From a virus: DNA of 64,000 nucleotides. Under the pieces are notes generated by a model. It was not told where the DNA came from. It ran no database searches and saw only the letters and a program-made list of their open reading frames with translations. A program made the position numbers and the translations under genes. Positions 5,379-60,403 of this stretch are shown one piece after another (position 1 is the first letter of the stretch; the number at the start of each line of letters is the position of its first letter). The stretch lies in IMG/VR virus record IMGVR_UViG_3300048924_000619, positions 1-64,000 of that record; one strand, given 5' to 3'.

Positions 5379-5441
5379 TTGGGGTGTTCCCCGTTTTTTT
5401 GAGTTCCGATTGATGGAGAAGCTGCCCCAATTCCGTCACCC

Positions 5442-5495
5442 TGTATAGGCGGAATCCATCCAAGTTCCGGCGTATACCCCGGAGTTCCCGGAGCG
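5442..5495 (-). promoter_or_regulatory. Promoter-like box of the RecE-like operon
   Basis: On the minus strand the sequence ATTCCGCCTATACA lies 60 bases before the nuclease start. It shares TTCCGCCTA with two other leftward operon leaders (17718 and 25222). GAACTCC/GTTCCC-type repeats lie upstream in all three. The TATACA part is a plausible -10 element; no TTGACA-like -35 is evident. Confidence 0.55.
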
Positions 5496-5605
5496 CCATC
5501 AATACTCTCTAGTCACCCTCTATAATCACGTATTCGCCCGGCTTTGCTTAAGACGACTCCAATTGGATTCCGTAGGGTTGCGACGTCAGCCATGGATTAT
5601 TGGCG

Positions 5606-9836: not shown

Positions 9837-12685
9837 ACGCTCTCCTGACGCAGGAACAACTGGATAGCCTGCTCGATGCGATGCGCTCGCACGGCATCGT
9901 TTACAACACGAAGGAAAACGGCCCGATCCTGGCCGACGGAAAGCTGCACCGCTTCCAGGTCGACGGCGACCGAAACGACCGGCGCAACGGCTGGTACTGC
10001 GTCCACGTCGACGAGCGGCCGGCGGGCGCGTTCGGCTGCTACAAGCGGTGGGGCGACCAGCGCTTCGCCTGGACGGCCAAGGGCACGGCGCCGCTGACGC
10101 GCGAACAGCGCGAGGAGATTGCGCAGCGCCAGCGCGAACAGCGCGAGGCGAACGCGGCCGCTGAGGCCGAGCGCCAGGCGCACGCCGCGACCCGATCGCA
10201 GGCGATGTGGGACGCGGCGGCCGAATGTACGGAGCATCCGTACCTGACCCGCAAGGGCGTAGGCGCGTACGGCGTGCGGATCGGGGACTTCTGGAAAGAG
10301 CGCCGGGAAGACGGCAAGCCCTTCCTGGCCGCCAAGGGCGCGCTCCTGATTCGGATGCGCGACGGGACCGGGACAACCGGCCTGCAGGCGATCTATGCGC
10401 AGCCGCTCAAGATGGGCGACGAGGCGCGCGACAAGGATTTCGTCTACGGGGCCAAGAAGGCCGGAGCCTGGGCCACGATCGGCAAGCCGATGGAGCTCAA
10501 CGGGTGCGTCACGCTGCTCGTGGTCGAGGGCTATGCCACGGGCGCCAGCGTGCACGAGGCGACCGGCCTGGGCGTGATCGTCGCGTTTGACGCCGGGAAC
10601 CTGATGGCCGTCGGGCGCGAGGTCCGCCGGCTTATGCCCAAGGTCCGGCTCGTGTTCGCCGCGGACAATGACCAGTGGACGGACCGGCCGGTGCGGAACC
10701 CGGGCGTCACGAAGGCGCGCGACGCCGCGGCGGCCGTCGGCGGCGAGGTGATCGCGCCGGCGTTCGCTAACGTCGAGCTGAAGCCGACCGACTGGAATGA
10801 CATGCATGCCCAGTCGGGCCTGACTGAGGTCCGCCGCCAGCTCATGGCCGCGCTCGATCCTCAGCCGGAACCGGCGCCGGAGCCTGATTCGGAGCCGGAC
10901 GAGCCGCCGCCGATCGAGAACCTCGACGACTTCGGGCCGATCGATCGGGACGAACCCGCGGCCCTCTTGCCGGCTGATCTCCCGGAGCCGGAAGAGGAGG
11001 AGATCGACAACCCGTATTTCACAGTGCGCGGCCACGATCGGACGCAGATCTTTATCTATCAGCACGAAAAGAAGATGATCACGGCCCGCGGCGAGGCCGA
11101 TTGGTCCGAGTCAGCGCTGACGGCGATCGCCCCGTTGCACTGGTGGGAGCTGAACTTCCCCGGCGACAAGGGCCTGAACAGGAAGCTGGCCGTGAATTGG
11201 CTCCAGCGCATGGCGTTCAAGCGCGGCTACTTCGATCCGAACTCGCTCCGCGGCCGGGGCGCCTGGCGCGATGACGGGCGGTTCGTCTTCCACTTCGGCC
11301 ATCAGCTCTGGGTCGACGGCCAGATGATGGACGTGACCAAGATCGATTCGACCTACATCTATGAGCAGGGGCGCCGGCTGCGGCTGCCCGCTGAAGAACC
11401 GCTCTCCACCGCGGACGGCAAGAAGGTGTTCGAGACCTTCCAGGGGTTCGCCTGGACGCGGCCTGCCTCGGCGATCCTCATGGCCGGCTGGTGCGCGCTC
11501 GCGCCCGTCGGCGGGGCGTTGCGCTGGCGGCCGCACGTGTGGATCACGGGCGGCGCCGGGTCGGGCAAGACGACCATTCTGAACTTCACGCACTGGCTGT
11601 TGAACGGGTCGAACCTGTACGCGCAGGGCAACTCGACCGAGGCCGGGATCCGGCAATCGCTGCGGACTGATTCGCTCGGGGTGATTTTCGACGAGAGCGA
11701 ACAGAACAACGAGCGTGAGGCGCTGCGTATGCAGAACGTCCTCTCCCTTATCCGCCAGTCGTCGACGGAGTCGGACGCCAAGACGTTCAAGGGAACGCAG
11801 GGCGGCGACTCCATGCACTTCATTATCCGGTCCATGTTCTGCATGGGATCGATCCAGGTGGGCCTGAAGCAACAGGCGGACATGGAGCGCATCTCGATCC
11901 TGGCGCTGAAGCCAAAGCGCGAGGCTGTCGGCGAGGAGGAGAAGGCCGCGGCGGCCTGGAAGCGCATCAGCGCAAGCATGACCGCGCTCCGCTCCGACGC
12001 TGAGCTGCCGGCCAAGATGCTGCGCCGCACGCTCACCCTTCTGCCGATCATCGTCCAGAACGTCGAGGTGTTCGCGCAGGCGGCCGCGGAGACGTTCGGC
12101 TCGCAGCGCGACGGCGACCAGTACGGCGCCTTGCTGGCGGGCGCGTGGTCGCTCGTGTCGACTAAGCTGGCCACGATCGACGAGGCCCGCGCCATGATCG
12201 CGCGCTACGACTGGTCGGAATACCTCGAGGGCAGCGACACCGAGGAATCGGACAAGGCCCTGGCCGCTCTCATGGGCCGCCTGGTGCGCGTGAAGTCGCA
12301 GGAGGTCAGCCTCTACGAGCTGACCCAGCGCGCGGCCGGCGTGGACTGCGAGATGAAGGACATCAGCACGAAGGAGGCGGACAACGTCCTGCGCCGCCAT
12401 GGGCTGATGATCGAGTGGAACGGCGCGCGGCACGTCGAGAATGGGACGCTGCTCGTCGCCTACAAGCACGGCGAGTTGGATCGGCTGATGGAGGCGACCC
12501 CCTATGCCGCCGATCTGAAGGGCCAGCTGCTGCGCATCGCTGGCGCCGGCCGCACCGCCGGTTCGGTGCGGTTCCTGGGTACGCCCTCACGCGCCGTAAA
12601 GCTCCCCTTGACGCTCGTGCTCTCCGGCGCCGGCGATGAATTGCCGGTTCCTGATGACGAGGACTTTGACCGGATCTCATTCTAG
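9833..12685 (+). CDS. Toprim primase fused to SF3-like/DUF927-type helicase
   Basis: This 950-aa replication protein starts at a TTG overlapping the previous stop. The N-terminal ~200 residues hold a primase-associated region (HPYLTRKGVGAYG). A Toprim domain lies at ~225-285, with VVEGYATG (acidic Glu) and FAADND (D-x-D). An acidic/proline linker spans ~340-385. The ATPase half has Walker A GGAGSGKTT (~572-580) and an acidic IFDESEQN Walker B-like segment. It should prime and unwind phage DNA. It ends the rightward replication operon and faces the leftward operon's terminator. Confidence 0.92.
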   Translation: MNALLTQEQLDSLLDAMRSHGIVYNTKENGPILADGKLHRFQVDGDRNDRRNGWYCVHVDERPAGAFGCYKRWGDQRFAWTAKGTAPLTREQREEIAQRQREQREANAAAEAERQAHAATRSQAMWDAAAECTEHPYLTRKGVGAYGVRIGDFWKERREDGKPFLAAKGALLIRMRDGTGTTGLQAIYAQPLKMGDEARDKDFVYGAKKAGAWATIGKPMELNGCVTLLVVEGYATGASVHEATGLGVIVAFDAGNLMAVGREVRRLMPKVRLVFAADNDQWTDRPVRNPGVTKARDAAAAVGGEVIAPAFANVELKPTDWNDMHAQSGLTEVRRQLMAALDPQPEPAPEPDSEPDEPPPIENLDDFGPIDRDEPAALLPADLPEPEEEEIDNPYFTVRGHDRTQIFIYQHEKKMITARGEADWSESALTAIAPLHWWELNFPGDKGLNRKLAVNWLQRMAFKRGYFDPNSLRGRGAWRDDGRFVFHFGHQLWVDGQMMDVTKIDSTYIYEQGRRLRLPAEEPLSTADGKKVFETFQGFAWTRPASAILMAGWCALAPVGGALRWRPHVWITGGAGSGKTTILNFTHWLLNGSNLYAQGNSTEAGIRQSLRTDSLGVIFDESEQNNEREALRMQNVLSLIRQSSTESDAKTFKGTQGGDSMHFIIRSMFCMGSIQVGLKQQADMERISILALKPKREAVGEEEKAAAAWKRISASMTALRSDAELPAKMLRRTLTLLPIIVQNVEVFAQAAAETFGSQRDGDQYGALLAGAWSLVSTKLATIDEARAMIARYDWSEYLEGSDTEESDKALAALMGRLVRVKSQEVSLYELTQRAAGVDCEMKDISTKEADNVLRRHGLMIEWNGARHVENGTLLVAYKHGELDRLMEATPYAADLKGQLLRIAGAGRTAGSVRFLGTPSRAVKLPLTLVLSGAGDELPVPDDEDFDRISF

Positions 12686-34264: not shown

Positions 34265-34960
34265 ATGGCGGAGGCGTCCCCCGATCTGAAAGACCGGATC
34301 CTCGCGGAGATCGCGGCCCATGTGCGCGTCTACGGGCGCACGCAGTGGGACCGCGTCCGCGAGCGGCCGGAGTTCGCGCCCATCATCGGCAAGGAGTCCG
34401 GGGCCGGCGGCCGGCGGAAGTTCTTCCGCTGGGTCGACGTGGTCTGCGCGCCCCGGCCGGATGACGCCGTCGGCGCCGGCCGGCCGCATGAGGGGCGGGA
34501 CGTCGCCGCGGAGGCGCTGAGCGATGCGCAGCGGCGCGCGCTGCTCGCGGCCCAGAAGAACATCCCGGCCGCGCCGTCGCCGTCGTACATGATGCGCAAG
34601 GGTGCCCAGGCGGAAAACCAGATCAACTTCCTGGCGATCGTGCACGAGCTGATGGCCGACGTCGGCAAGCTGCGCGGAATGTCCGTCGTCGCGGACGAGG
34701 CGGCGGCTGACGGCGAGCGGGTCAAGAATCCGCACCTGTTCGGCCAGGCGATCGACAAGCGGCTCCGCGTGATGGAGACCGCGCTGAAGGTCATGCAGGA
34801 AATCTGGGACCTGCAGTACCAGCAGCGGTTCTACGACGAGATCACTGAGATCATCGTCACGGAGCTGGCGGCGATCCCTGACGTGCAGGAGCGCGTCATC
34901 CGGCGCCTCGCTGACCTGAACAACCGGCGGGGCATGACGCTCTACGCCGAGCCGACCTGA
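34265..34960 (+). CDS. Probable terminase small subunit
   Basis: A 231-aa protein. N-terminal DLKDRILAEIAAHVRVYGRTQWDRVRERPEFAPIIG could be an HTH-like DNA-binding helix set. A long helical middle follows (AENQINFLAIVHELMADVGKLRG..., KRLRVMETALKVMQEIWDLQYQQRFYDEITEIIVTEL). Its position directly before the large subunit, with TGATG overlap, supports a small-subunit role. I do not recognise a named family. Confidence 0.6.
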   Translation: MAEASPDLKDRILAEIAAHVRVYGRTQWDRVRERPEFAPIIGKESGAGGRRKFFRWVDVVCAPRPDDAVGAGRPHEGRDVAAEALSDAQRRALLAAQKNIPAAPSPSYMMRKGAQAENQINFLAIVHELMADVGKLRGMSVVADEAAADGERVKNPHLFGQAIDKRLRVMETALKVMQEIWDLQYQQRFYDEITEIIVTELAAIPDVQERVIRRLADLNNRRGMTLYAEPT

Positions 34961-37062
34961 TGGCGGGCCGGCCGCCGTCGCCATTCAACCGCCGCAAGCC
35001 GCGCCCGATCCCGCAAACGGACGCGCTGTCGGCGGCGATCGCCCAGCTCGAGGCGCGCACCGGGCACAAGGTGACGCCGGACCAGAAGGCGATCCCGGAC
35101 GGGATGACGTTCCGCCAGTGGTGCGAGAAGCTCGGGGCCGAGGGCCTCGAGGTGGACGGCAAGCCGTTCACGCTCCACGACCGGCCGGCGATGGCCTGGA
35201 TCTACGACCAGATCCCGTCGACGGCGGACGAGGCCTACAACCTCGTGCTCGTCCTGATGAAGTGCGCGCAGGTCGGGTTCACCGTCATGGAGATGCTGGC
35301 CACGGTCTACCTGGGGCTCAAGTTTGGGCCCTGCACGGTCGGCATGTTCCTGCCGGACATCAACTTGGCGGGCATGAAGTCAACTGAGCGCTTCATGCCC
35401 ATCATCCGGTCGATTCCGGATGTGCACGCGCTGATGACGCAGGACGCCGCCGACGGCTCCGGCAAGAAGCGGGGCGAGGGCAACGTCAACCGCCGGCGCA
35501 TCGCCAAGGCCCTGTTCGTCTTCTCCTGGACGTCCGGCAAGGCGTCGACCGAGTCCGTCCCGATGGACATCCTCTCCTTCGACGAAGTGCAGGAGATGAC
35601 GAAGGAGCAGCTGGAAAAGACCCAAGAGCGCCTGAGCGCCTCGCCGGTCCGCTTCACGCTGATGGGCTCGACGGCCAACTGGCCAGACGAAGACATCCAC
35701 TTCTGGTACAAGAAGGGGTCGCAGCACCAGTTTCACACCGAATGCCCGACGTGCCGGGTGAAGAAACCGCTCGACGACTATTTCCCGAGGTGCATCCAGT
35801 GGGATGCGGCGCGCCGGGTCTATCGCTACGTCTGCGAGGCCGGACATTGGATCGACGACCCTCAGATCGGCGAGTGGGTGGCCTTCAACGAGGAGGCTGA
35901 CCCGGCGATCGACTACACGATCCCGAAGAAGCACTGGCCGAAGCGGATCCGGTCCATCCACTTCCCCCAGTTCCTGTCGCCGACGATCAGCGCCTCGGAC
36001 ATGATGACCGCCTACAACGAGGCGAGCGACCTCAAGAACTACCACAACCGGAAGCTTGGGAAGCCGTTCCTCGACCCGACCGTCACGCCCGTGACGCTCG
36101 AGCATTGTGCGCGCGCCGTCGAGCTCGGCCGCGCCGCCGGCGTCCAGTGGAAGACTCGGGCGCGCGGGACCTTCATGGGCATCGACCAGATGGGCCAGTT
36201 CAACGTGCACATCATCAAGGAGCGCCTGCCCGACGGCCGCCAGGCCGTGATCCACTACGAGGAGACGTACGCGGAGGATCCGTTCGCACGCTCGAGCGAG
36301 CTCATGGAGGCCTACGGCGTCCAGGCCTGCGTCGTCGAGATCAACCCGAATTTCAACGACGCGCACAAATTCGCGAAGCGCCACCCGGGCAAGGTGTTCC
36401 TCTGCGACGGGTTCAAGGCGATCGAGGGCGACATGATCGTCTGGGGCGACGGGCCGAAGCTCGACGTATCGGACCGGCGAACCGATGAGGACTCACGGAC
36501 GCGCTACACGGTCAAGGCCGACCAGTACAAATGCATGCAGACGTCTCTCGCGCGCATCGTGAAGGGCCACTGCCTGTTCCCGGACCCGAAGGAGCTTATC
36601 CAGGAGGTCGTCGACAAGGGCGTTCGCCAGCTGGTGCCCATCCTGCCGCGGCTGTTCCTGCACTTCACGCGCACGGCGCTCGTCGCCGAGAAGGACAAGG
36701 AAACCAACAAGTACAAGCGCTCCGTCAAGAAGGTGGGGCTGGATCCACACGGTTCGTACGCTAACCAATTGTGCGACGTCGCCTGGGCGCGGGCCCACGG
36801 CACGGCGAGCTTCATCCTCCCGGAGACTGGCGACGTGGCAACTGATCAAGCTAAGCAATCTGCCGAAATGGGCATGGTCGGCCTTCCGAACCACGTCGTC
36901 AGCATGCTCAACGACCTGCCGCCTGGCGTCTGCGGCCGCTGCTCGGCCTATCCCTTCGGCGACGACAACGGGCCGCCGGCGCGCGGGATGTGCGCGGAGC
37001 GCGGGTTCGAGGTCGCCGCGGCGGATCCGGCCTGCCCGATGTTCGCGGCGGTCGAGGGCTAA
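34960..37062 (+). CDS. Terminase large subunit, GpA type
   Basis: A 700-aa packaging ATPase/nuclease of the lambda GpA class. The ATPase has a Walker A-like KCAQVGFT, TVGMFLPD, a SWTSGKASTESVPMDILSFDEVQEM Walker B, and LMGSTANWPDEDIHFWY. A CPTC zinc half-site follows. The nuclease domain begins near MGIDQMGQFNVHII and has CVVEINPNFND. The C-terminus carries an extra Cys-rich end (GVCGRCSAYPFGDDNG). GpA-type enzymes cut at cos or similar ends. Confidence 0.95.
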   Translation: MAGRPPSPFNRRKPRPIPQTDALSAAIAQLEARTGHKVTPDQKAIPDGMTFRQWCEKLGAEGLEVDGKPFTLHDRPAMAWIYDQIPSTADEAYNLVLVLMKCAQVGFTVMEMLATVYLGLKFGPCTVGMFLPDINLAGMKSTERFMPIIRSIPDVHALMTQDAADGSGKKRGEGNVNRRRIAKALFVFSWTSGKASTESVPMDILSFDEVQEMTKEQLEKTQERLSASPVRFTLMGSTANWPDEDIHFWYKKGSQHQFHTECPTCRVKKPLDDYFPRCIQWDAARRVYRYVCEAGHWIDDPQIGEWVAFNEEADPAIDYTIPKKHWPKRIRSIHFPQFLSPTISASDMMTAYNEASDLKNYHNRKLGKPFLDPTVTPVTLEHCARAVELGRAAGVQWKTRARGTFMGIDQMGQFNVHIIKERLPDGRQAVIHYEETYAEDPFARSSELMEAYGVQACVVEINPNFNDAHKFAKRHPGKVFLCDGFKAIEGDMIVWGDGPKLDVSDRRTDEDSRTRYTVKADQYKCMQTSLARIVKGHCLFPDPKELIQEVVDKGVRQLVPILPRLFLHFTRTALVAEKDKETNKYKRSVKKVGLDPHGSYANQLCDVAWARAHGTASFILPETGDVATDQAKQSAEMGMVGLPNHVVSMLNDLPPGVCGRCSAYPFGDDNGPPARGMCAERGFEVAAADPACPMFAAVEG

Positions 37063-38822: not shown

Positions 38823-38899
<77 letters not shown>

Positions 38900-38903
38900 A
38901 TTC

Positions 38904-38916
38904 GCCCTTTCAGGGC
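38904..38916 (+). repeat. TTCGCCC hairpin copy 1
   Basis: GCCCT-TTC-AGGGC preceded by AATTC, immediately after the tRNA. Confidence 0.7.
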
Positions 38917-39203
38917 ATCCGAGATGCGGACCACGCTCGAATAGGTGGCAATCCCTCCGGGGCCTGCGGACCGAAAGACTGGCGAGCATGGCGCTAAAGG
39001 CAAGCTTCTGGCCCGCGCCGGCTGAAAGGCCGGCAACAAGATCCCGTGCGAACGGGGCGCGCTTGATGGGAGGCCCGCGGAAGGGCCGAACGTAGCACCC
39101 CTAGTAGGCCGGCCCCGAGGCGGTTCGGGTGCCCGTTGGCGCCGGCGGTTACGGCGTCAGAGGCCCAATGGGCCGCAGTTGGTGGAAGCCCGGCGCCAGT
39201 TTC

Positions 39204-39216
39204 GCCCCTTCGGGGC
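39204..39216 (+). repeat. TTCGCCC hairpin copy 2
   Basis: GCCCC-TTC-GGGGC preceded by GTTTC. It follows a 62-base element closed by a 9-bp stem. Confidence 0.65.
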
Positions 39217-39400
39217 GTCCGATGCGTCTTGTTGCAGGTGCAAGAGCCGGCTGCGGTTGCCCGACGGGGCCACCTAGCGAGTGCCGGACGTGGTTGGTGG
39301 TTTGGTCGCCCTAGGCGGCCTCGTCCGCCAGCGATCAAAACCTGAGGGGTTAATGGGCGGTCACCGACGGGAGACCGCCCAAGACTTCCAAATGAGAATT

Positions 39401-39461
39401 CGCCCTTGCAGGGCACACAAGCTTTGGTTCGGACCCGGGTGCAATTCCCGGCGGCTCCACC
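39401..39461 (+). ncRNA. ssrA: tmRNA acceptor piece (permuted, two-piece type)
   Basis: The 3' part of tmRNA, encoded first. T-arm CCGGG-TGCAATT-CCCGG (39435-39451) is followed by acceptor strand CGGCTCC (39452-39458), discriminator A and CC. It pairs with GGGGCCG at 39540-39546, giving a G3:U70 wobble, the alanyl-tRNA synthetase signal. CGCCCTTG (39401-39408) can pair with CAGGGGCG (39563-39570) as helix P2. The terminal A is not encoded and must be added. Confidence 0.9.
39402..39414 (+). repeat. TTCGCCC hairpin copy 3
   Basis: GCCCT-TGC-AGGGC preceded by AATTC. It overlaps the 5' part of the tmRNA acceptor piece, where the same bases can instead form helix P2. Confidence 0.65.
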
Positions 39462-39539
39462 CAAGCCCATCGACCGCCGCGAGAGCGGGCGGCGCCCGGA
39501 GCGAAGGGGCGTTGATGCTAACGGGACGATGGGCTTCGG
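39462..39539 (+). ncRNA. Intervening segment of the tmRNA precursor
   Basis: Joins the two tmRNA pieces in the precursor. AAGCCCATCG (39463-39472) pairs perfectly with CGATGGGCTT (39527-39536), extending the acceptor stem. An inner CCGCC/GGGCGG stem follows. This is the expected form of a segment to be cut out. Confidence 0.85.
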
Positions 39540-39775
39540 GGGGCCGATCAGGATCGACGAGCCAGGGGCGCGGTGAAAGCCGCATTTGATAACTCTGAAC
39601 GACAACTATCCCATCGCTCAGGCCATCGCGGCCTAGCAGGAGCCCGGCGGGGGCTTGGCAACAGAACCCCGCCACCCAGAGGCCTAGGCGGGCCAACCGA
39701 TCACCGAAAGGGACCACGGCGGCGCCGATCGTGGCGACTCCCCCGGCCGGTTGGTTCGACCCTAGGCCTCTGGGC
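39540..39775 (+). ncRNA. ssrA: tmRNA coding piece with peptide-tag frame
   Basis: Begins GGGGCCGATCAGGATCGACG, close to the conserved tmRNA 5' end. The tag frame ends AAC-GAC-AAC-TAT...GCG-GCC-TAG (39598-39636) and encodes NDNYPIAQAIAA, like alphaproteobacterial tags (NDN-x start, small hydrophobic AA end). The resume codon is uncertain; CTG (39595) directly precedes. Downstream, GGCGGGG/CCCCGCC pairs, and a perfect 14-bp helix joins 39675-39688 to 39761-39774, with CCAACCG/CGGTTGG and CCACG/CGTGG inside. The 3' end is not exactly known. Confidence 0.92.
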
Positions 39776-40113
39776 CAACGAGAAGACCGACAGCGCGCCA
39801 GCGTACCAGTCTTAGTAAATGGGTGAATCTGGTGGGAGCCTGACCGCTCCCGTTCCTGAGGGCTGGGGGGGAAGCGATTGATCGTCGCTGATACCGAAGC
39901 TCAAGGGCGACAAGATCAGGTTGGCTAGCCCGAACGCGCCGCAGCACCGCCGGCGCCAGTACGGAGGTCCCGGACCGGTTGCGCGTGCTGGCGCAGCCGC
40001 GGAATCCCCGCCCATCGTGGCTTCGGCCTTGAACGTGGGAAAGTCACCCCGGCTGCGTTCCACGCGGTCGGGCAGGCCCTTCCGGGGGATCCTGATGACC
40101 GGGGCATGAATTC

Positions 40114-40125
40114 GCCCGAACGGGC
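40114..40125 (+). repeat. TTCGCCC hairpin copy 4
   Basis: GCCC-GAAC-GGGC preceded by AATTC. Confidence 0.65.
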
Positions 40126-40291
40126 AACAGAGGTCTGTGCCGACAGACGGTCAGGGGCGGCCCCCGCGAGGTTTCGACTTCAGCGACGGGATCGTAAGTC
40201 CTTGGGCATCGGCCCGTGCGGTGTGCCGGCGGTTATCCGGTTGTCCGGGGGCAATTGACTGAACCCCCTCAACAAAGCTGTCAGGAGTTGC

Positions 40292-40303
40292 GCCCGAAGG
40301 GGC
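40292..40303 (+). repeat. TTCGCCC hairpin copy 5
   Basis: GCCC-GAAG-GGGC preceded by GTTGC. Confidence 0.6.
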
Positions 40304-40529
40304 ACACGAGTTGTCGGCGGGGAGGCGGTTAGCGCCGCTTCCAGCCAAGGTTGGCCAACCGGGTCAATGCTCTGCGCAGGGCGGCGACCTTAAGCGTGAA
40401 TGGCATCGCGGTTCGAGTCCGTGGCGCGCACATGGCAACCGCCGGCGAAACCATCTGGCGGCGGGGCATCCGAGCTATCGGAGTAGGGCCCCGCCGCTGG
40501 GGCAGACTTCCCCCGCCCCTCCCAATTCG

Positions 40530-40537
40530 GTCGTGAC
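40530..40537 (+). promoter_or_regulatory. GTCGTGAC motif before the portal gene
   Basis: Exactly 14 bases before the portal ATG, with a CGCC/GGCG hairpin in between and no Shine-Dalgarno. Confidence 0.7.
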
Positions 40538-40551
40538 GCCAGTATCGGCGC

Positions 40552-42297
40552 ATGGCCGACAATCCCGCCGCCGTTGCGACAGATCCGAACGCGCCCGCGT
40601 CGGAGCGCCACGACGCGCAGGCTGAGTTCCAGAAGTCGCACGGCACGGCCGGGATCGCGTCCGAGCTGTTTCCATCCGCGGCGATGGAGCCGGTCATTGC
40701 CCGGATCCAAGAGGTTCTGTTCGAGCAGGATCTCAACAAGGCCGCGCAGGGAAACCTGATCGTCGGCCCCTGGAAGAACAAGCGGCCGCAAGACGGCGGC
40801 CAGTCCGTCTTCCTCGACAATTTCCAGATCCAGACGCAGGGCCCCTACTGGGATCGGCCTGGCGTCCTGGGCTTCGACGCCATGCGGTCGATGGTCGAGC
40901 AAACGCCGATCCTCAACAGCATCGTGCTCACGCGCATCCGCCAGGTCCGCCGCTTCTGCCGGCCGCGGATGGGCAACACGGGCCCCGGCTTCGTGATCGA
41001 ACACGTTGATCCGCAGGTCGAGCTCAACGACGACCAGCAAGCATCGATCCAACGCCTGACGCAGTTCGTGATCAACTCCGGTTGGGAAACGGACGCCAGG
41101 GCCCGCAAGCGCAAGAAGCGCGACCCGTTCGCGGCGATGATGGCGAAGCTCGTGCGCGACACGCTCACGATGGACGCCTGCCCGATCGAGACCGAGTTCA
41201 AGCGGTCGCGGAGCCTGGGCCTGGACGGTCTCTATGCGCTGGACGGCGCCACGATCCGCCTGTGCACCGAGGAGGGCTACAACGGTGACGACGAGTTCTT
41301 CGCCCTGCAGGTCATCCAGGGCAACATCCGGACCGCCTACACCTACGACGACCTGATCTATGAGGTGCGGAACCCGCGCACCGACGTGACCGCCTGCGGC
41401 TACGGCTACTCCGAGACGGAGATGCTGATCCGCATCGTCACCTACCTGCTGAACACGATGACGTTCAATGGGTCGTTCTTCGACAAGAACTCGATCCCGC
41501 GCGGCATCCTCAACGTCTACGGTCAGTTCACGAACGAAGACGTCGCGGCGTTCAAGCGCCAGTGGAACGCCATGGTTCGCGGGGTCCAGAACTCCCACAA
41601 CCTGCCCGTTCTGGTTTCCAAGGACCAGGAGTCCGGGACCAACTTCACCGAGGTCGGCGGCCAGCTCAACGAGATGGCCTTCGGGAAATGGCTCTCCTTC
41701 CTGACGTCGATCGCGTGCGCGATCTTCGGCGTCGCCCCCGAAGAAATCTCCATGGAGTCGTTTGCCACGACGAGCCGCGGGCTCGGCGGGAACGACACCG
41801 AGGAGAAGCTCGTCTCAGCGAACGACAAGGGCCTCGTGCCGCTGCTCAACTTCGTCGAGGACATCTACTCCGATTTCATCCTCCAGCCCTTCTCGCCGCA
41901 GTACCGGCTGACCTTCAAGGGCCTCGACGATGAGGACGAGGACAAGCGCTGGGAGCGTCAGAAGCTCTCGCTCACCTGGAACGAGGTGCGCGCGGTCGAC
42001 AGCATGGACCCGATCGATGGGCCGCTGGGCGACGCGCCCATGAACCCCACGCTGATCGGCATCTGGGCTCAGGAGTCCGGCGTCGGCCAGCCAGAAGAGC
42101 CGGAAGAGGACTTCGGCGACCCGGACGCCGCCGGCGCCGATGATGGCGTGCCCGCCAGCGGAGAGCTGGAGGCAGGCCCGCCCGAACAGCAGACAGAAGA
42201 CGCAGGCGCGCCGGATCTCGGTTCGCCTGCCGGCGGCGACGAAGTGGCCAAGGCCCTCGATTTCGGCCTGCCGATCTACGTCCTCGACCTGTCGTGA
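40552..42297 (+). CDS. Phage portal protein
   Basis: A 581-aa portal: AMRSMVEQTPILNSIVLTRIRQV near the N-terminus, a central beta region (YALDGATIRLCTEEGYNGDDEFFALQVIQGNIR...YDDLIYEVRNPRTD), NTMTFNGSFFDKNSIPRGILNVYGQF, and the stem/wing helices to ~460. The last ~110 residues are acidic and low-complexity, then end ALDFGLPIYVLDLS. It forms the ring through which DNA enters the head. Transcribed behind GTCGTGAC, and its own stop codon lies inside the next copy of that motif. Confidence 0.93.
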   Translation: MADNPAAVATDPNAPASERHDAQAEFQKSHGTAGIASELFPSAAMEPVIARIQEVLFEQDLNKAAQGNLIVGPWKNKRPQDGGQSVFLDNFQIQTQGPYWDRPGVLGFDAMRSMVEQTPILNSIVLTRIRQVRRFCRPRMGNTGPGFVIEHVDPQVELNDDQQASIQRLTQFVINSGWETDARARKRKKRDPFAAMMAKLVRDTLTMDACPIETEFKRSRSLGLDGLYALDGATIRLCTEEGYNGDDEFFALQVIQGNIRTAYTYDDLIYEVRNPRTDVTACGYGYSETEMLIRIVTYLLNTMTFNGSFFDKNSIPRGILNVYGQFTNEDVAAFKRQWNAMVRGVQNSHNLPVLVSKDQESGTNFTEVGGQLNEMAFGKWLSFLTSIACAIFGVAPEEISMESFATTSRGLGGNDTEEKLVSANDKGLVPLLNFVEDIYSDFILQPFSPQYRLTFKGLDDEDEDKRWERQKLSLTWNEVRAVDSMDPIDGPLGDAPMNPTLIGIWAQESGVGQPEEPEEDFGDPDAAGADDGVPASGELEAGPPEQQTEDAGAPDLGSPAGGDEVAKALDFGLPIYVLDLS

Positions 42298-54427: not shown

Positions 54428-57400
54428 ATGCTGCTGCTCCTGATGAAGGCCGATCAGCTCGGCCTGTTCGAAAAGCTCGTGCCCGTGAAGGCGAGCATCA
54501 GCTCGTCTGGCCGTCTGATCTCCGCGCACACGGCGATCCGGCACGTCCGGCGCGTCGAGCCGACGAAGCGCCATGCCGAGGTGCTCGACCTCTTCGGACA
54601 CGCGCCGCAGCCGAAGCCGGCCCTGGTCACGCCGAAGAAGCCCGCGCCGGCACCGCAGGCGGACCTGTTCGAGCATCGGCCGGATCCGCCGAAAGCCGAC
54701 CTCAACGGCATGATGGCGCGGTCGCGCGATCAGCGCTTGGCGCGCGAGGCCAAGGCGAAGGAGATCGGTGCCGGCGTCGGGTCGGTCAAGCTGAAGCATG
54801 CTGACGGTCGCGCCGCGCTGCTTTCCCCGGATCTGCAACGCGACGGCGGCTGGCGATTCACCCGCCTGGATGCCGACGGGCCGGTGGGCCACTCCGAGTA
54901 CGACAGCAAGGAGGCCGCCGCTGCGGAGGCGCTGCGTGCCGGGTACTCAACCGACGCGCCGGAAGCGATCCAGCCGCACGCGCCGTTAGAACCGGCGGTC
55001 AGCCTCCAAAATCAATTACCCGCCTCCGGAATCGATTACTCCGAGGGCCTGCCGGCCGAGCTTCCTGCTTTCGGCGTCGCGCCGGGGACGACCAAGGGCG
55101 AGCGACGGGCGATCAATGCGCTGGCCGCCTCAATGGTCAACGGCCGGAAGTCCCTGCTCGACGAGGCGCCGGCACCGGTCAATCCGGAGGTGCTCCGTCA
55201 ATATTCGGGCTGGGGCGGCTGCGGCGACAGCCTGAACGAGTTCTACACCGATCCGAACGTGGCCGCGGCCATGTGGTCCGTCCTCCATCGCATGGGCCTG
55301 GGGGAGGGCGCGAGCGTCCTGGAGCCGTCCTGCGGCACGGGCGTCTTCCTCGAGCTGGCGCCGAAGGGCGTCAAGGTCACAGGAGTCGAGCTCGACGAAA
55401 CCAGCTCCAAGATCGCGGCCACCCTGCACCCGACCCACGAGGTGGTGAATTCCGCCCTCGAGGCTTTCGCGACGACCGACACGCGCCAGTTCGACGCGGT
55501 GATCGGCAACCCGCCGTTCGGCGATAGCCGTGGCTCCCTGGTTGCGGCCGACAAGCCGGACATCAGCCGGCCCGAGCAATATTTCGTCGATACCGCGCTG
55601 GACAAGGCGCGCGCCGGCGGCCTGGTCGCGCTCGTGCTGCCGACCGGGATCTTGGACAGTCGGTCTGCGCGCAAGCTGCGGGATCGCTGGATCCGCAAGG
55701 GCCAATTCCTCGGCGCCCTGCGCATGCCGAACACCGCGTTCGAGGCCAGCCACACGGGCGTGACCACGGACGTCGTGTTCTTCCGCAAGCGGCCAGACGA
55801 GGTCGCCGGCGCGCTGTCCGTGGTCGATCGCGACACCCTGAAACTGCTCGGCGCCTGGGACGAGGAATTCGTCGGCGGCGGCTACTTCAGCGGCCGCGGT
55901 GAGGGCAACATCCTTGGCACGCTGGAAGCCGGGTGGCGCTCCAAGGCCGGCATGGGCGACGACATCACCGTGGCAGGGTCGATGGTGGGCGTCCCGGAGG
56001 CGATCGCCAGCTTTGAGCCTGAACAGCCGTCGGGCCCGACGGGCGTGGAGGAGGTGCTCGGCGCCGTCCAGGACCAGGATCTGAAGGCTCGCATCCGCGG
56101 CGCGGCCGCGCGCAAGCCCTACGATCAGGCGAAGCGCGGCGACACCCGGGTCATCGACGGCGTGACGTACGTCCTGGAGGGCTCGCCGCTCCGCTGGCAT
56201 CGCGTGGACGAGTTCATGGCGGAGCAGGCCGTCGTCGACGCCGGCGCGCTCGGCGCCGACATCGAACGCGCGGTGCAGGGCGAAGACGTGCCCGGCCTGG
56301 CGGACCGCGTTCGCGCCTATGTCTCGGCGCACGGGATCCCGGCGAAGAATCCGAACCTCGTCATAGCGGCAAAGCAGGACAAGGCGATATATCGCCTGCT
56401 CGGCGCCGTTAAGCAGGACGGCTCGCTCTCTGACGTTGTCGAGGGCCGTCGCGAGTCCGCCGCCGTCTCCAACTTTGACACGGCGGCGAAGACCCTCGCC
56501 CTGGAAGTCGGCTACTTCTCGCCCTCCATGGTCGCCGGCCGCTGGCATGGCGGGACCGAGGATGTGGTGCTCGACCACCTCTATGCCTCGCCAGACTATG
56601 CGATCGATCCGCGCAGCGGGACCTGGACGAGCCTCGACCAGTACCTCTCCGGCGAGCTCTGGCCGAAGTACGACGACGCGAAAGCGGCGCTGGCCGAATC
56701 CGACTTGAAGCCGGAAGACCGGGCGAAGATCGAACGCCAGCTGGCCGCGCTGGACGAGGCGATTGCGCCGAAGTCGCTGGAGGACGTCGAGATCCAGGTG
56801 AATAGCGGCTTCGTGCCGCTGAACGTCGTGTCGGCTTTCTTCAACGAGGTCCACCCGTCGAGCTACGGCGACAAGACGCCGATGACCATCACCTATGACG
56901 AGGGCGTCTTCGCCGTCATGGGTGGCGGCTACGAGGCGCACACGCTGCGCAAGTACCTGAACCGCGACGGCGTGCGGAAGGACGACGATCTGCCGACGAT
57001 CGAACGGTGGAACCGGGCATTCAAGGAGTGGCTCTGCGCCTCCGCCTATCGCGACGAGGTCGAGGAGCTCTACAACCGGAAATTCCGAGGCTTCCGCCAG
57101 AAGGCCTATTCGGAGGAAGCGTTCGAGGTTCCAGGCCTGCGGTCCGACGGCCTGAAGAGCTACCAGTGGAGCGGGCTGCGCTGGGCTCTGGAGGCCGGCA
57201 AGGGGATCATCGCGGCCGACGTTGGCCTGGGGAAGACGGCCCGCGCGCTGATCCTCAACAAGCTGATGAAGATCACGGGGCAGGCCAAGCGCCCCATGAT
57301 CGTGGTCCCGAAGTCCGTGGCGGCCAACTGGATGCGCGAGGCGGAGAAGTGGTTCCCCGGCTCGTCCGTCATGGTGATCGGCGAGACCTACAGCCGCGAC

Positions 57401-60400
57401 AAGAACGGCGAGCTCAAGGGGCGTGGCGATACCGAGGCGGAGCGGAATCAGAAGTTCCACGACATCCGGCAGAACGACTACGACTTCATCCTGATCACGC
57501 AGCCGGCCTGGAATGCGCTCGACCTGGATCCGGAGACCAAAGAAAAATACGCCAGCTCCGACTTCTGGGAGAAGCGGAAGGAAGGCCTGGGCAAGGGCCC
57601 GAGCGCCAAACAGCTCGCCCGCCAGAAGGAAGCCCACGACGCCAAGATCGCGAAGCAGGACTTCCAAAGCCGCTCGGACGCGCTCTACTTCAATGACCTG
57701 GGCGTCGACGCCCTCATCTCCGACGAGATGCACGCCTACAAGAACCTGTTCGAGGCGCGGGACCGCTTCGGCCAGCAACCGAAGTTCCTCGGCGGTTCGT
57801 CCAGCTCAAAGCGGGCGGCGGACATGCGCTGGAAGACGGACTGGCTGCGCGACCAGACCGGCGGTCGCAACGTCTATGGCCTGACGGCCACGCCGACGAA
57901 GAATAGCCCGCTTGAGGTCTATTCGATGCTCTCGCATATCGCCCCTGAGGCGTTCCTGAACATCGGAATCCGGAACTCCGAAGACTTCCTCGACCGCTTC
58001 TGCGAGTTCAAGGAGGAGAACGTCCTGGACACGAATGGGCGGATGACCCGCTCGCTCTGCGTCAAGGGCTTCAAGAACCTGTCCGAGCTGCGCGAGATCA
58101 TGCGCCGCTACATCGACCGGAAGACGGCTGAGGACGTCGGCCTGCAGCTGCCGGCGAAGGACGATCGGCAACACCTCGTCGATATCTCGGCCTCCCAGAA
58201 GGAAGTCTACGCCGAGTTGCGCGAGCTTGCGGAGAAGGCGAAGCAGGCCGGCAACGACGCCAGCGGCGAGGCGCACCCGTTCTCCATCATGCACAAGATG
58301 GACCGGGCGACGCTCGACCTGGAGCTCTACGACCCGGTCCGCTACGCTGGCGCCCGGTCGCCCAAGCTGGAGCAGGCCGTCACCAACATCACATCGGGCA
58401 TCAAGGAAGGCGGCCAGATCGTCTTCTGCGACGCGATCGAGACCCATGACAAGCTGGTCGGCCTCCTCGTCGCAGCGGGGATTCCCCGCGATCAGATCGG
58501 AGTCCTGAACGCCAAGGTCGCGCCCACCTCGGCCAAGCGCCAGAACATCGCGGAGGCCTACCGGGCGAAGAAGCTGCGCGTGGTCATCGGCAACTCGACG
58601 ATGGAAGAGGGCGTCGATGGCCTGCAGGCCGACACGACCGACATTCACCACCTCAACATCCCCTGGACGCCGGCGGCCATCCAGCAGCGGAACGGTCGCG
58701 GCCTTCGCCAGGGCAACACCGCAGAGGCCGTGCGCCTGCACAACTACCTCGCGAAGGGCACGTTCGACGGCTACCGCTATCAGACGATCTCGGCGAAGAA
58801 GGACTGGCAGACCCTCCTCTGGGACGGCGGCGACCGCGTTGAGAACCTCGCGTTCGAAGGCGGCATGAACCACGAGGAGATGTTGATCGCGCTCGCCGAG
58901 GATCCGGACAAGGCGCGCGAGGAGTTGACGAAGAACAAGGAGTTGGCGCAGGCCAAGCTCGACGCGCAACAGTACGCCGACGCGGCGGAAGCGTACCGGG
59001 CCTATCGGAAGATGCGCGCCAGCCTCAAGAAGCTGGACGCGGGCTCGCGCGCCAAGGCCTCGGGCCAGCGCCTCGAGCACAAGCTGAGCATGATGCGGAC
59101 CTCGCTGGAGGCGAACCCGTACTTCAAAGCCAAATCCGCGATCGACGCCGACCATGAAATCATGATCGCGCCGGGGTCTGGCGACGCCATCGCGCCTGGC
59201 GCGGGCCTCGACGTGCCGCCCGAGGGCAAGATCACCACGGGCAGATATGTGGTCGAGAAGGTGTCGCCGGATCACGGTTGGGTTGAGCTGCGGCGCTGGG
59301 GCGAAACCGGGAAGGCCGGGCGCATGCTCGTCGATCTGGCCGACCTCTCCCACGCGAAGGTGACGGAGCACGACAAGGCGGCGGAGGACGCGCACATCAC
59401 GGCGAAGACGGCTGAGGTGCTCGCGGCCGGCGCCAAGGATCTCGACAGCTACAAGAAGCTGCGGGAGTTCCCGTCGGCGGCGATCGAGGCCAACCGGGAA
59501 GCGATCAGCCACACGGTCAAGCGCGGCCTGAAGGAATACAAATTCCGCGACGGCTACGAGGCGCGGATCGGGATCATCCGGCCAGAGGGCGCGCGAGCGC
59601 TGCCGAGTTACGAGGCCGGCAAGCTGACGGACGCCGACCTGCCCATGCTGCCGATCGACGAGCACAAGAAGCTCGCGTTCGACGCCTACGCTGCGGACGA
59701 GGCCGGCAAGAAGTTCACGAAGGTGCCCGAGACCGGTCGCCGCGGCGCCTCCACGGGGCGGTATCGCGATGAGCTGCGCTACCCGGGCGACCACTATAAC
59801 GGCGAGACGAAGAACCGCTGGGCGAGCGTGATCGAGAATCTCTGGGGCCCGGAGGGGTTGTCGGAGGCCCACCGCCAGTTTGAGTCTCGGCAAATGGAGG
59901 CCGCGCGCCGCGCACCGGACTTGAAGACGGCGATCGCCCACGCCCTGCCGACATCCATCCGGAAGGAAGGCTACATGCCGACGGTGAAGAGCAAGTGGGG
60001 CCGCAAGGCCTTGGCCACGCTCTACGCGAAGGCGAAGGCTGGCGGCCACCTGCGTACGCCGCTGCTCGACCACCTGGAGACCAAGGAGGTGCGTCAGGGC
60101 TACGGGCTCAGTGAGCGCCGCTACCAGACGCCAGTCGTCAGCGAGGATCACTTCTCCGATGGACGCACCTACGGATCCGTCGTCAAGGAGCCGGTCGGCT
60201 CGGCCCTTGCCAAGCTCGCCGTCGCCAACGGTCACGTCGACCTTGCATCGGCCATGGCCGTCGATCACGCCGAGACGCCGGAAGAGGCCATGTCCAACCT
60301 TGGCCGGCTGCCCGAGCACCCGGCGCGCGAGGACGCCAAGCGCCACCTGATCGCCAAGCATCCTCACCTGGGCCAACTCGAGGAGGCGCCGCGTGCAGCC

Positions 60401-60403
60401 TGA
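54428..60403 (+). CDS. DarB-like methyltransferase-helicase polyvalent protein
   Basis: 1991 aa. N-terminal ~200 residues hold small domains. An N6-adenine methylase follows with EPSCGTG (299-305) and NPPF (361-364). An SNF2-type helicase then has ADVGLGKTA (~929-937), ISDEMHAYKNL (~1097), VYGLTATPTKNSP, and NGRGLRQGN (~1424). The last ~500 residues include further polyvalent domains. This is the order seen in P1 DarB and related antirestriction proteins, carried in the capsid to shield incoming DNA. The start lacks a Shine-Dalgarno and sits on a hairpin behind GTCGTGAC. Confidence 0.9.
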   Translation: MLLLLMKADQLGLFEKLVPVKASISSSGRLISAHTAIRHVRRVEPTKRHAEVLDLFGHAPQPKPALVTPKKPAPAPQADLFEHRPDPPKADLNGMMARSRDQRLAREAKAKEIGAGVGSVKLKHADGRAALLSPDLQRDGGWRFTRLDADGPVGHSEYDSKEAAAAEALRAGYSTDAPEAIQPHAPLEPAVSLQNQLPASGIDYSEGLPAELPAFGVAPGTTKGERRAINALAASMVNGRKSLLDEAPAPVNPEVLRQYSGWGGCGDSLNEFYTDPNVAAAMWSVLHRMGLGEGASVLEPSCGTGVFLELAPKGVKVTGVELDETSSKIAATLHPTHEVVNSALEAFATTDTRQFDAVIGNPPFGDSRGSLVAADKPDISRPEQYFVDTALDKARAGGLVALVLPTGILDSRSARKLRDRWIRKGQFLGALRMPNTAFEASHTGVTTDVVFFRKRPDEVAGALSVVDRDTLKLLGAWDEEFVGGGYFSGRGEGNILGTLEAGWRSKAGMGDDITVAGSMVGVPEAIASFEPEQPSGPTGVEEVLGAVQDQDLKARIRGAAARKPYDQAKRGDTRVIDGVTYVLEGSPLRWHRVDEFMAEQAVVDAGALGADIERAVQGEDVPGLADRVRAYVSAHGIPAKNPNLVIAAKQDKAIYRLLGAVKQDGSLSDVVEGRRESAAVSNFDTAAKTLALEVGYFSPSMVAGRWHGGTEDVVLDHLYASPDYAIDPRSGTWTSLDQYLSGELWPKYDDAKAALAESDLKPEDRAKIERQLAALDEAIAPKSLEDVEIQVNSGFVPLNVVSAFFNEVHPSSYGDKTPMTITYDEGVFAVMGGGYEAHTLRKYLNRDGVRKDDDLPTIERWNRAFKEWLCASAYRDEVEELYNRKFRGFRQKAYSEEAFEVPGLRSDGLKSYQWSGLRWALEAGKGIIAADVGLGKTARALILNKLMKITGQAKRPMIVVPKSVAANWMREAEKWFPGSSVMVIGETYSRDKNGELKGRGDTEAERNQKFHDIRQNDYDFILITQPAWNALDLDPETKEKYASSDFWEKRKEGLGKGPSAKQLARQKEAHDAKIAKQDFQSRSDALYFNDLGVDALISDEMHAYKNLFEARDRFGQQPKFLGGSSSSKRAADMRWKTDWLRDQTGGRNVYGLTATPTKNSPLEVYSMLSHIAPEAFLNIGIRNSEDFLDRFCEFKEENVLDTNGRMTRSLCVKGFKNLSELREIMRRYIDRKTAEDVGLQLPAKDDRQHLVDISASQKEVYAELRELAEKAKQAGNDASGEAHPFSIMHKMDRATLDLELYDPVRYAGARSPKLEQAVTNITSGIKEGGQIVFCDAIETHDKLVGLLVAAGIPRDQIGVLNAKVAPTSAKRQNIAEAYRAKKLRVVIGNSTMEEGVDGLQADTTDIHHLNIPWTPAAIQQRNGRGLRQGNTAEAVRLHNYLAKGTFDGYRYQTISAKKDWQTLLWDGGDRVENLAFEGGMNHEEMLIALAEDPDKAREELTKNKELAQAKLDAQQYADAAEAYRAYRKMRASLKKLDAGSRAKASGQRLEHKLSMMRTSLEANPYFKAKSAIDADHEIMIAPGSGDAIAPGAGLDVPPEGKITTGRYVVEKVSPDHGWVELRRWGETGKAGRMLVDLADLSHAKVTEHDKAAEDAHITAKTAEVLAAGAKDLDSYKKLREFPSAAIEANREAISHTVKRGLKEYKFRDGYEARIGIIRPEGARALPSYEAGKLTDADLPMLPIDEHKKLAFDAYAADEAGKKFTKVPETGRRGASTGRYRDELRYPGDHYNGETKNRWASVIENLWGPEGLSEAHRQFESRQMEAARRAPDLKTAIAHALPTSIRKEGYMPTVKSKWGRKALATLYAKAKAGGHLRTPLLDHLETKEVRQGYGLSERRYQTPVVSEDHFSDGRTYGSVVKEPVGSALAKLAVANGHVDLASAMAVDHAETPEEAMSNLGRLPEHPAREDAKRHLIAKHPHLGQLEEAPRAA

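What the first reader, a model, noticed from the sequence alone, without database searches (positions are those of the whole stretch)
39401..39775. Phage-carried, circularly permuted two-piece tmRNA with its own degradation tag
Seen directly: T-arm and acceptor strand come first. A 78-base intervening segment closed by a perfect 10-bp stem follows, then the conserved 5' end GGGGCCGATCAGGATCGACG and a tag frame coding NDNYPIAQAIAA-stop. The acceptor halves pair with a G3:U70 wobble and an A discriminator (alanine identity). Known: two-piece permuted tmRNA is an alphaproteobacterial form, and one-piece tmRNA genes are known in some mycobacteriophages. Inference: between terminase and portal, this is a phage gene that could rescue ribosomes or redirect proteolysis during infection.
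Basis: partly seen in the sequence, partly recalled or inferred. Interest (0 to 1): 0.92.

Follow-up and report, generated by a model that had tools for sequence, protein, structure and literature searches.

The report
Phage-borne two-piece tmRNA gene
A bacterial virus carries its own working-looking copy of tmRNA, the RNA that frees stuck ribosomes and tags unfinished proteins for destruction; the kind is already known from other phages, but here it is a shortened version with its own tag, probably taken long ago from Caulobacter-like bacteria.

Summary
Window 39417-39636 matches Rfam's permuted tmRNA family above its cut-off (58.6 vs 47 bits), with all named parts at the given coordinates. 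Comparison with an independent phage copy (L188, 71% identical) shows about eight paired double changes and no broken pair in the compared stems. The tag frame is kept (LNDNYPIAQAIAA vs VNDNQDLSYAVAA). The tRNA-like core is of Caulobacterales type. It is not an attachment-site copy: both gene halves are present, 38 kb from the integrase gene, and 398 Caulobacterales genomes match only in short conserved pieces. The window belongs to a 94-kb phage of the Dolphis/PHB04 kind. Two-piece phage tmRNAs are already published (PMC9004378), so this is a new member of a known kind. New here: a compact form with a hairpin where PK1 should be, no encoded CCA, missed by ARAGORN, in a variable terminase-portal interval where a relative holds a betaproteobacterial-type tmRNA. 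Most likely it does trans-translation with host SmpB and proteases (inferred, untested). Two side findings may be more novel: small ORFs inside the intervening segment of other phage tmRNAs, and an uncatalogued conserved motif at 38.9 kb.

The parts
39397..39415 (+). AATTCGCCC-hairpin directly upstream of the acceptor piece; near-copy (95%) of one at 38899-38917 directly after the tRNA-Met
   Evidence: the repeat finder family D1; possible processing or border hairpin, inference
39425..39461 (+). tmRNA acceptor piece: P2 strand TGGTTC 39425-39430, T-arm 39435-39451, acceptor 3' strand 39452-39458, A73 39459, CC 39460-39461 (position 76 is C, so CCA is not encoded)
   Evidence: Rfam alignment; pairing check
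39462..39539 (+). Intervening segment removed from the mature RNA; closed by perfect 10-bp stem 39463-39472 / 39527-39536
   Evidence: (inverted repeat I2); most other phage copies have 7-19 bp stems of different sequence at about the same offsets
39540..39594 (+). tmRNA 5' piece up to the tag: acceptor 5' strand GGGGCCG 39540-39546, D-loop-like part, P2 strand GAGCCA 39559-39564, hairpin GCGG-TGAAAG-CCGC 39570-39583 in place of pseudoknot 1
   Evidence: alignment; hairpin read from the sequence; L188 keeps GCGG/CCGC with a different loop
39595..39636 (+). Tag reading frame LNDNYPIAQAIAA, stop TAG (likely resume codon CTG)
   Evidence: Rfam alignment; L188 VNDNQDLSYAVAA in register; 58 distinct tags compared
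39639..39674 (+). 3' structured part of the coding piece (GGCGGGG...CCCCGCC hairpin with conserved UGGCAACAGAA loop), identical in phage L188 over the 36 bases
   Evidence: also in Caulobacter phages and Caulobacterales tmRNAs
39675..39774 (+). Separate 100-nt hairpin with perfect 14-bp terminal stem, downstream of the tmRNA, not shared with relatives
   Evidence: I3; fold of 39640-39800, z -4.25
38823..38899 (+). Initiator-like tRNA-Met in the same non-coding stretch
   Evidence: ARAGORN, RF00005 63 bits

Best explanation
It is a genuine permuted (two-piece) tmRNA gene of alphaproteobacterial, Caulobacterales-like type, carried by a phage and kept by selection. The single transcript folds so that the 10-bp stem holds the future 3' and 5' ends together. 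Host RNase P and 3' processing would cut out the intervening segment, and the host CCA-adding enzyme would restore the tail, since CCA is not encoded. AlaRS would charge the RNA through G3:U70. With host SmpB it would enter stalled ribosomes, switch translation to the phage tag and release the ribosome, and host proteases would degrade the tagged product. Shown here: gene anatomy, pairing conservation, intact tag frame, no phage SmpB found. Inferred: expression, processing, activity and benefit to the phage.
For: RF04321 over cut-off. All 12 T-stem and acceptor pairs are kept in 24/24 sequences, with 32 double-changed cells against a shuffle mean of 8.1 (0/500 as high); G3:U70 is invariant. 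Window vs L188 has double changes in the T-stem, acceptor, P2 and half of the intervening-segment stem pairs, none broken. The tag keeps the NDN start and a hydrophobic residue before Ala-Ala, as in the other listed tags (the listing required Ala-Ala, so only the hydrophobic residue is informative). The T-arm 31-mer occurs in Asticcacaulis, Maricaulis and Hyphomonadaceae genomes. No SmpB in the 94-kb record. Many other phage contigs carry alpha-type permuted tmRNAs with the same layout.
Against: CCA is not encoded. PK1 is replaced by a 4-bp hairpin and the upstream part of the acceptor piece is not recognisable, so activity could be reduced. Only a small minority of the phage family carries a tmRNA. 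No expression data. The actual host is unknown.
Confidence: 0.75

Rival explanations
1. A decoy: the phage tmRNA mainly competes for SmpB and AlaRS and damps host trans-translation, like the tRNA-like-domain-only RNA of mycobacteriophage DS6A.
For: The tRNA-like domain is the best conserved part while the upstream structure is reduced; a TLD-only molecule is reported to inhibit tmRNA (PMC4131195, PMC11915505).
Against: A full tag frame with stop and hydrophobic-Ala-Ala end is kept in register with L188, and the 36-base 3' structured part is identical; a decoy would not need them.
Confidence: 0.12
2. An inert att-site copy or relic of the host gene left by integration or imprecise excision.
For: The record has a tyrosine integrase with an Arm-DNA-binding domain at 1-1296, most near-complete relatives have one too, and tmRNA genes are common integration sites (PMC11915505).
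Against: The tmRNA is 38 kb from the integrase, between terminase and portal. It has both gene halves in order, with a new intervening segment and compensating changes. Among 398 sampled Caulobacterales genomes the best-scoring match covers only 36 bases.
Confidence: 0.06
3. A tag-switching device: the phage tag differs from the host tag so that rescued products are handled differently (spared or sent to another protease).
For: The phage tag LNDNYPIAQAIAA differs from Caulobacterales tags such as ANDNFAQDVAVAA and ANDNYAEEVALAA, and other family members have other tags (ANDDYIRAAA, ANDSVYEMRMAA).
Against: Both ends thought to matter for degradation (NDN, hydrophobic-Ala-Ala) are kept, as in bacterial tags; mid-tag divergence is also usual among bacteria.
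Confidence: 0.07

Closest known systems
Two-piece tmRNAs of marine phages (Methylophilales phage Melnitz and others; PMC9004378)
   Same: Phage-encoded, circularly permuted, Melnitz's being alpha-type, with own tag
   Different: Those are mostly marine or aquatic; this one is GC-rich, compact, lacks encoded CCA and sits in another phage family, between terminase and portal
Alphaproteobacterial two-piece tmRNA (Rfam RF01849; Caulobacter, Keiler et al. 2000) and merged model RF04321
   Same: Segment order, alpha-type T-arm, G3:U70, A73, 5' piece start GGGGCCGATCAGGATCGAC identical to Asticcacaulis and Maricaulis
   Different: About 25 nt fewer before the tag, 78-nt intervening segment against 30-33 nt in these bacteria, no recognisable PK1, own tag, CCA not encoded
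Permuted tmRNAs of Caulobacter phages CcrColossus, phiCbK and relatives (not annotated in the GenBank stretches read)
   Same: Close to tRNA-Met genes; long perfect stem in the intervening segment; similar 3' part (GGCAACAGAA or GTCAACAGAA)
   Different: Longer PK1 region and longer tags (VNDNDAPVMEQLLAA, VAANDNDVVAFASAREAIAA); jumbo phages
tmRNA of Bordetella phage PHB04 and IMG/VR contig L080 (same phage family)
   Same: Permuted tmRNA in a family member; L080 has it in the same terminase-portal interval
   Different: Betaproteobacterial type (RF01850 best in its clan) with tags ANDDYIRAAA and ANDSVYEMRMAA; probably separate acquisitions
One-piece tmRNAs of mycobacteriophages such as Bxz1 and the TLD-only RNA of DS6A (PMC4131195)
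   Same: Phage-carried tmRNA
   Different: Not permuted; DS6A lacks a tag

Membership tests
Permuted (two-piece) tmRNA, RF04321 | Covariance-model score over the gathering cut-off | tested here: met
   58.6 vs 47 bits
Permuted (two-piece) tmRNA, RF04321 | Acceptor piece precedes the 5' coding piece, with an intervening segment | tested here: met
Permuted (two-piece) tmRNA, RF04321 | Alanine identity: G3:U70 in a 7-bp acceptor stem and A73 | tested here: met
Permuted (two-piece) tmRNA, RF04321 | Short tag frame ending in hydrophobic-Ala-Ala and stop | tested here: met
   LNDNYPIAQAIAA-TAG
Permuted (two-piece) tmRNA, RF04321 | Encoded CCA (usual, not defining: PMC11915505 says not always encoded) | tested here: not met
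   ACCC at 39459-39462; for the paper
Permuted (two-piece) tmRNA, RF04321 | Cleavage into two RNAs, aminoacylation, SmpB binding, tagging | not testable with these tools
   needs RNA and protein experiments
Alpha subtype, RF01849 | Score over the subtype's gathering cut-off (50 bits) | tested here: not met
   48.3 bits, partial match to model 82-172 of 355; alpha origin rests on T-arm and 5' end identity
Alpha subtype, RF01849 | Pseudoknot 1 upstream of the tag | tested here: inconclusive
   only a possible hairpin seen; the fold program cannot predict pseudoknots; a stable hairpin can replace PK1 in E. coli (Tanner 2006, cited in PMC3968760)
Attachment-site copy | Partial gene, near-identical to the host end, next to the integrase | tested here: not met

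The most novel reading that the evidence does not exclude
The terminase-portal interval of this phage family is a docking place where permuted tmRNAs from different bacterial classes are captured repeatedly, and in this phage it has become a translation-takeover RNA block: an altered initiator tRNA, an unknown conserved structured RNA, and a stripped-down tmRNA with a phage tag, all processed from one transcript.
Probability: 0.2. Interest if true: 0.65.

Novelty: new member of a known kind. Interest (0 to 1): 0.42.

Why it matters
It extends phage-encoded two-piece tmRNA to a GC-rich family of phages with isolated relatives (Dolphis, PHB04). It shows how far a two-piece tmRNA can be reduced while keeping its pairing and tag, and gives a natural compact form for testing what trans-translation really needs. 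It also suggests that phage copies are missed by ARAGORN-based annotation (this one) or simply left unannotated in GenBank (phiCbK, CcrColossus, PHB04).

Tried and rejected
1) Att-site copy: rejected (position, full gene, no near-identical sequence among 398 sampled Caulobacterales genomes). 2) Phage SmpB: none found. 3) Conservation across the phage family: 50 records were searched; three pass the cut-off, of which one (Caulobacter phage CcrColossus, W04) is outside the family; the other two (PHB04, L080) hold tmRNAs of another type, so this is not an ancestral family gene. 4) Weak hits in the records of L055/L056 (13.6 bits) were dropped as chance. 5) An ORF in the window's own intervening segment (TTG/ATG at about 39512): not conserved in L188, rejected. 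6) 38,895-39,400 and 39,675-40,550 against phage GenBank records: no meaningful match. 7) A custom covariance model was not built: a model of roughly 300 positions would exceed the calibration limit.

Full report
Observation. Rfam's permuted tmRNA model matches 39417-39636 with 58.6 bits against a cut-off of 47. The alpha-specific model gives 48.3 bits, just below its cut-off of 50, matching only the acceptor piece and 5' end. ARAGORN, which much phage annotation relies on, does not call it. The acceptor stem pairs 7/7 with G3:U70 and A73, the T-stem 5/5, and the intervening segment is closed by a perfect 10-bp stem. The genome encodes ACCC rather than ACCA, so the tail must be completed after transcription. 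PMC11915505 notes that CCA is not always encoded in tmRNA genes.

Setting. The window is part of a 94,137-base virus record with terminase (34960-37062) and portal (40552-42297) genes. Its terminase is 65% identical to those of Pseudomonas phages Dolphis and Jeremy and 45% to that of Bordetella phage PHB04. From about 38.76 to 40.5 kb there is no codon periodicity: this is a long non-coding stretch with a tRNA-Met, the tmRNA and other strongly folding sequence. The record has a tyrosine integrase, as do 15 of 21 near-complete records of the family, so temperate life is possible.

Homologues. A 31-base pattern from the window's T-arm and acceptor occurs in only seven genome contigs: Asticcacaulis, Maricaulis, a Hyphomonadaceae bacterium and an unclassified alphaproteobacterial MAG. 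The first 19 bases of the 5' piece are identical to Asticcacaulis and Maricaulis. Yet among 398 sampled Caulobacterales genomes the best-scoring DNA match covers just 36 bases of the T-arm region. The gene is therefore of Caulobacterales type but not a recent copy. The closest relative found is another phage contig, L188, 71% identical over 258 alignment columns, lying among head genes of an apparently different phage (those gene names are from my reading of the translations, not a search). Between the two, the stems carry paired double changes: one in the T-stem, one in the acceptor, one in P2 and five in the intervening-segment stem. P2 also has an A:U to G:U change, and no pair is broken (counted by eye from those outputs). 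The compact hairpin GCGG...CCGC before the tag is kept with a different loop. A 36-base stretch after the tag is identical, and the tag is in register: LNDNYPIAQAIAA vs VNDNQDLSYAVAA.

Test of pairing. On 24 distinct alpha-type sequences (phages plus three bacterial genomes), all 288 cells of the T and acceptor stems form standard pairs, with 32 double-changed cells against a shuffled mean of 8.1, and slid controls collapse. These sequences were picked with a pattern that fixed many inner positions, so the invariant pairs say nothing; the variable outer T-stem pairs and acceptor pair 5 carry the signal.

The intervening segment. In most phage copies it is closed by a long stem (7-19 bp) of varied sequence at nearly constant offsets, mostly 0-2 nt after the ACC and 3-5 nt before G1. 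In the Caulobacterales genomes compared it is 30-33 nt with 5-6 bp. The window (78 nt, 10 bp) follows the phage pattern. Some phage copies, mainly with short segments, lack the stem.

Reduction. The window and L188 have 55-56 nt between G1 and the tag, against about 80 in the Caulobacterales genomes. There is no visible PK1. A stable hairpin in place of PK1 still allows tagging in E. coli (Tanner 2006, cited in PMC3968760), so this does not argue against function. Several other phages are similarly short (59-66 nt). The free-energy fold of the whole precursor pairs this region differently, so the small hairpin rests on comparison with L188, not on the fold.

Distribution in the family. Of 50 records searched, only PHB04 (104.5 bits) and L080's record (133.2 bits) have one, besides CcrColossus, which is not of this family. 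Both are best matched, within the tmRNA/tRNA clan, by the betaproteobacterial model RF01850. In L080 the tmRNA lies in the terminase-portal interval, as in the window. That interval ranges from about 35 to 9400 bp across relatives and holds tRNA genes in several. I read this as repeated, separate capture of tmRNAs in a variable cargo interval; two cases at one locus are few, so this is tentative.

Mechanism. Nothing found here encodes SmpB, so the RNA would depend on host SmpB, AlaRS, RNase P, CCA-adding enzyme and proteases. Best reading: a working tmRNA that adds rescue capacity during infection, when mRNA is being broken. A decoy role (as suggested for the DS6A TLD-only RNA) and a tag-switching role cannot be excluded; the intact tag argues against a pure decoy.

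Prior knowledge. Two-piece phage tmRNAs are published: PMC9004378 lists 53 suggested by ARAGORN in a 2021 phage collection, 50 of them from marine or aquatic samples, and discusses similar functions. PMC11915505 holds 79 unique bacteriophage tmRNA sequences and built RF04321. The finding is real but of a known kind.

Side findings. (a) In at least 18 viral contigs the intervening segment of the permuted tmRNA encodes a conserved peptide of about 38 residues, MK(N/T)PLVREVSKWMFKAYILWSICADITLLAGIIYLVFF, ending one base before the 5' piece, with a Shine-Dalgarno-like AGGAG inside the closing stem. Differences by codon position are 778/354/1237, as expected for a selected protein. Unrelated peptides sit in the same slot in other contigs. 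None of the three tested matches PHROGs; the 38-residue peptide has no match in phage GenBank records. I did not find it described in the papers read. (b) A conserved motif at 38,899-39,045 recurs in further viral lineages, has no Rfam match and is absent from 398 Caulobacterales genomes by exact pattern.

Noticed in passing
L128:3965-4081 (+); also in the intervening segments of L110, L111, L115, L123, L127, L137, L144, L153, L156-L158, L162, L163, L165, L173, L182, L197, L213: The intervening segment of phage permuted tmRNAs encodes a conserved ~38-residue membrane-like peptide (MKNPLVREVSKWMFKAYILWSICADITLLAGIIYLVFF-type); a Shine-Dalgarno-like sequence lies in the arm of the segment-closing stem and the stop is one base before the mature 5' end. 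Third-position bias supports selection on the protein.
   Followed up: partly
L138 and L212 (next to the T-arm), L143 about 1984-2070 (+), L211: Other, unrelated short ORFs in the same tmRNA intervening slot (MKKKRVGKRGR..., MDGHHIFLTFVIFGSAAIFIWVMEAVLL, MNDKELIELISHN...).
   Followed up: partly
window 38899-39045; L037:4687-4850; L038 about 5400-5560; L221 about 1950-2100 (-); L223 about 11780-11930: Conserved non-coding motif: AATTCGC-hairpin, GRUGCGGAC, CUGGCGAGCAYGGCGYUAAAGGCAAGCWUCUGGCCCGCG, second hairpin. In about four viral lineages, no Rfam match, no exact match in 398 Caulobacterales genomes.
   Followed up: partly
window 38823-38899: tRNA-Met that looks like an alphaproteobacterial initiator tRNA (CUCAUAA loop, AGG/CCU stem) but has an A1:U72 pair and C73 instead of the usual bacterial C1xA72 mismatch and A73 (comparison from memory).
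   Followed up: no
window 39675-39774: 100-nt hairpin with a perfect 14-bp end stem just after the tmRNA; not shared with any relative.
   Followed up: partly
window 39780-40540: Non-coding, strongly folding stretch (z -3.3) between tmRNA and portal, with a further AATTCGCCC hairpin at 40108; no homologue found in phage records.
   Followed up: partly
L085:1166-1549 and L086:1121-1560: Permuted tmRNAs in Caulobacter phages CcrColossus and phiCbK that carry no annotation in the GenBank stretches read; ARAGORN finds the one in phiCbK (tag VAANDNDVVAFASAREAIAA).
   Followed up: yes
L086:177-663 (-): GOLLD RNA (RF02032, 165 bits) in Caulobacter phage phiCbK, enclosing a tRNA-Gly, close to the tmRNA.
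   Followed up: no
L087:1462-1833 (MF663786.1) and L080:13506-13818: Betaproteobacterial-type permuted tmRNAs in Bordetella phage PHB04 (unannotated in the stretch read) and in a related IMG/VR contig, tags ANDDYIRAAA and ANDSVYEMRMAA.
   Followed up: yes
window 1-1296: Tyrosine integrase with Arm-DNA-binding domain exactly at the record's left edge; most relatives, including Dolphis and PHB04, also carry one.
   Followed up: partly
window 54428-60403: 1991-residue protein with N6 methylase and SNF2 helicase domains, perhaps a DarB-like antirestriction protein.
   Followed up: no
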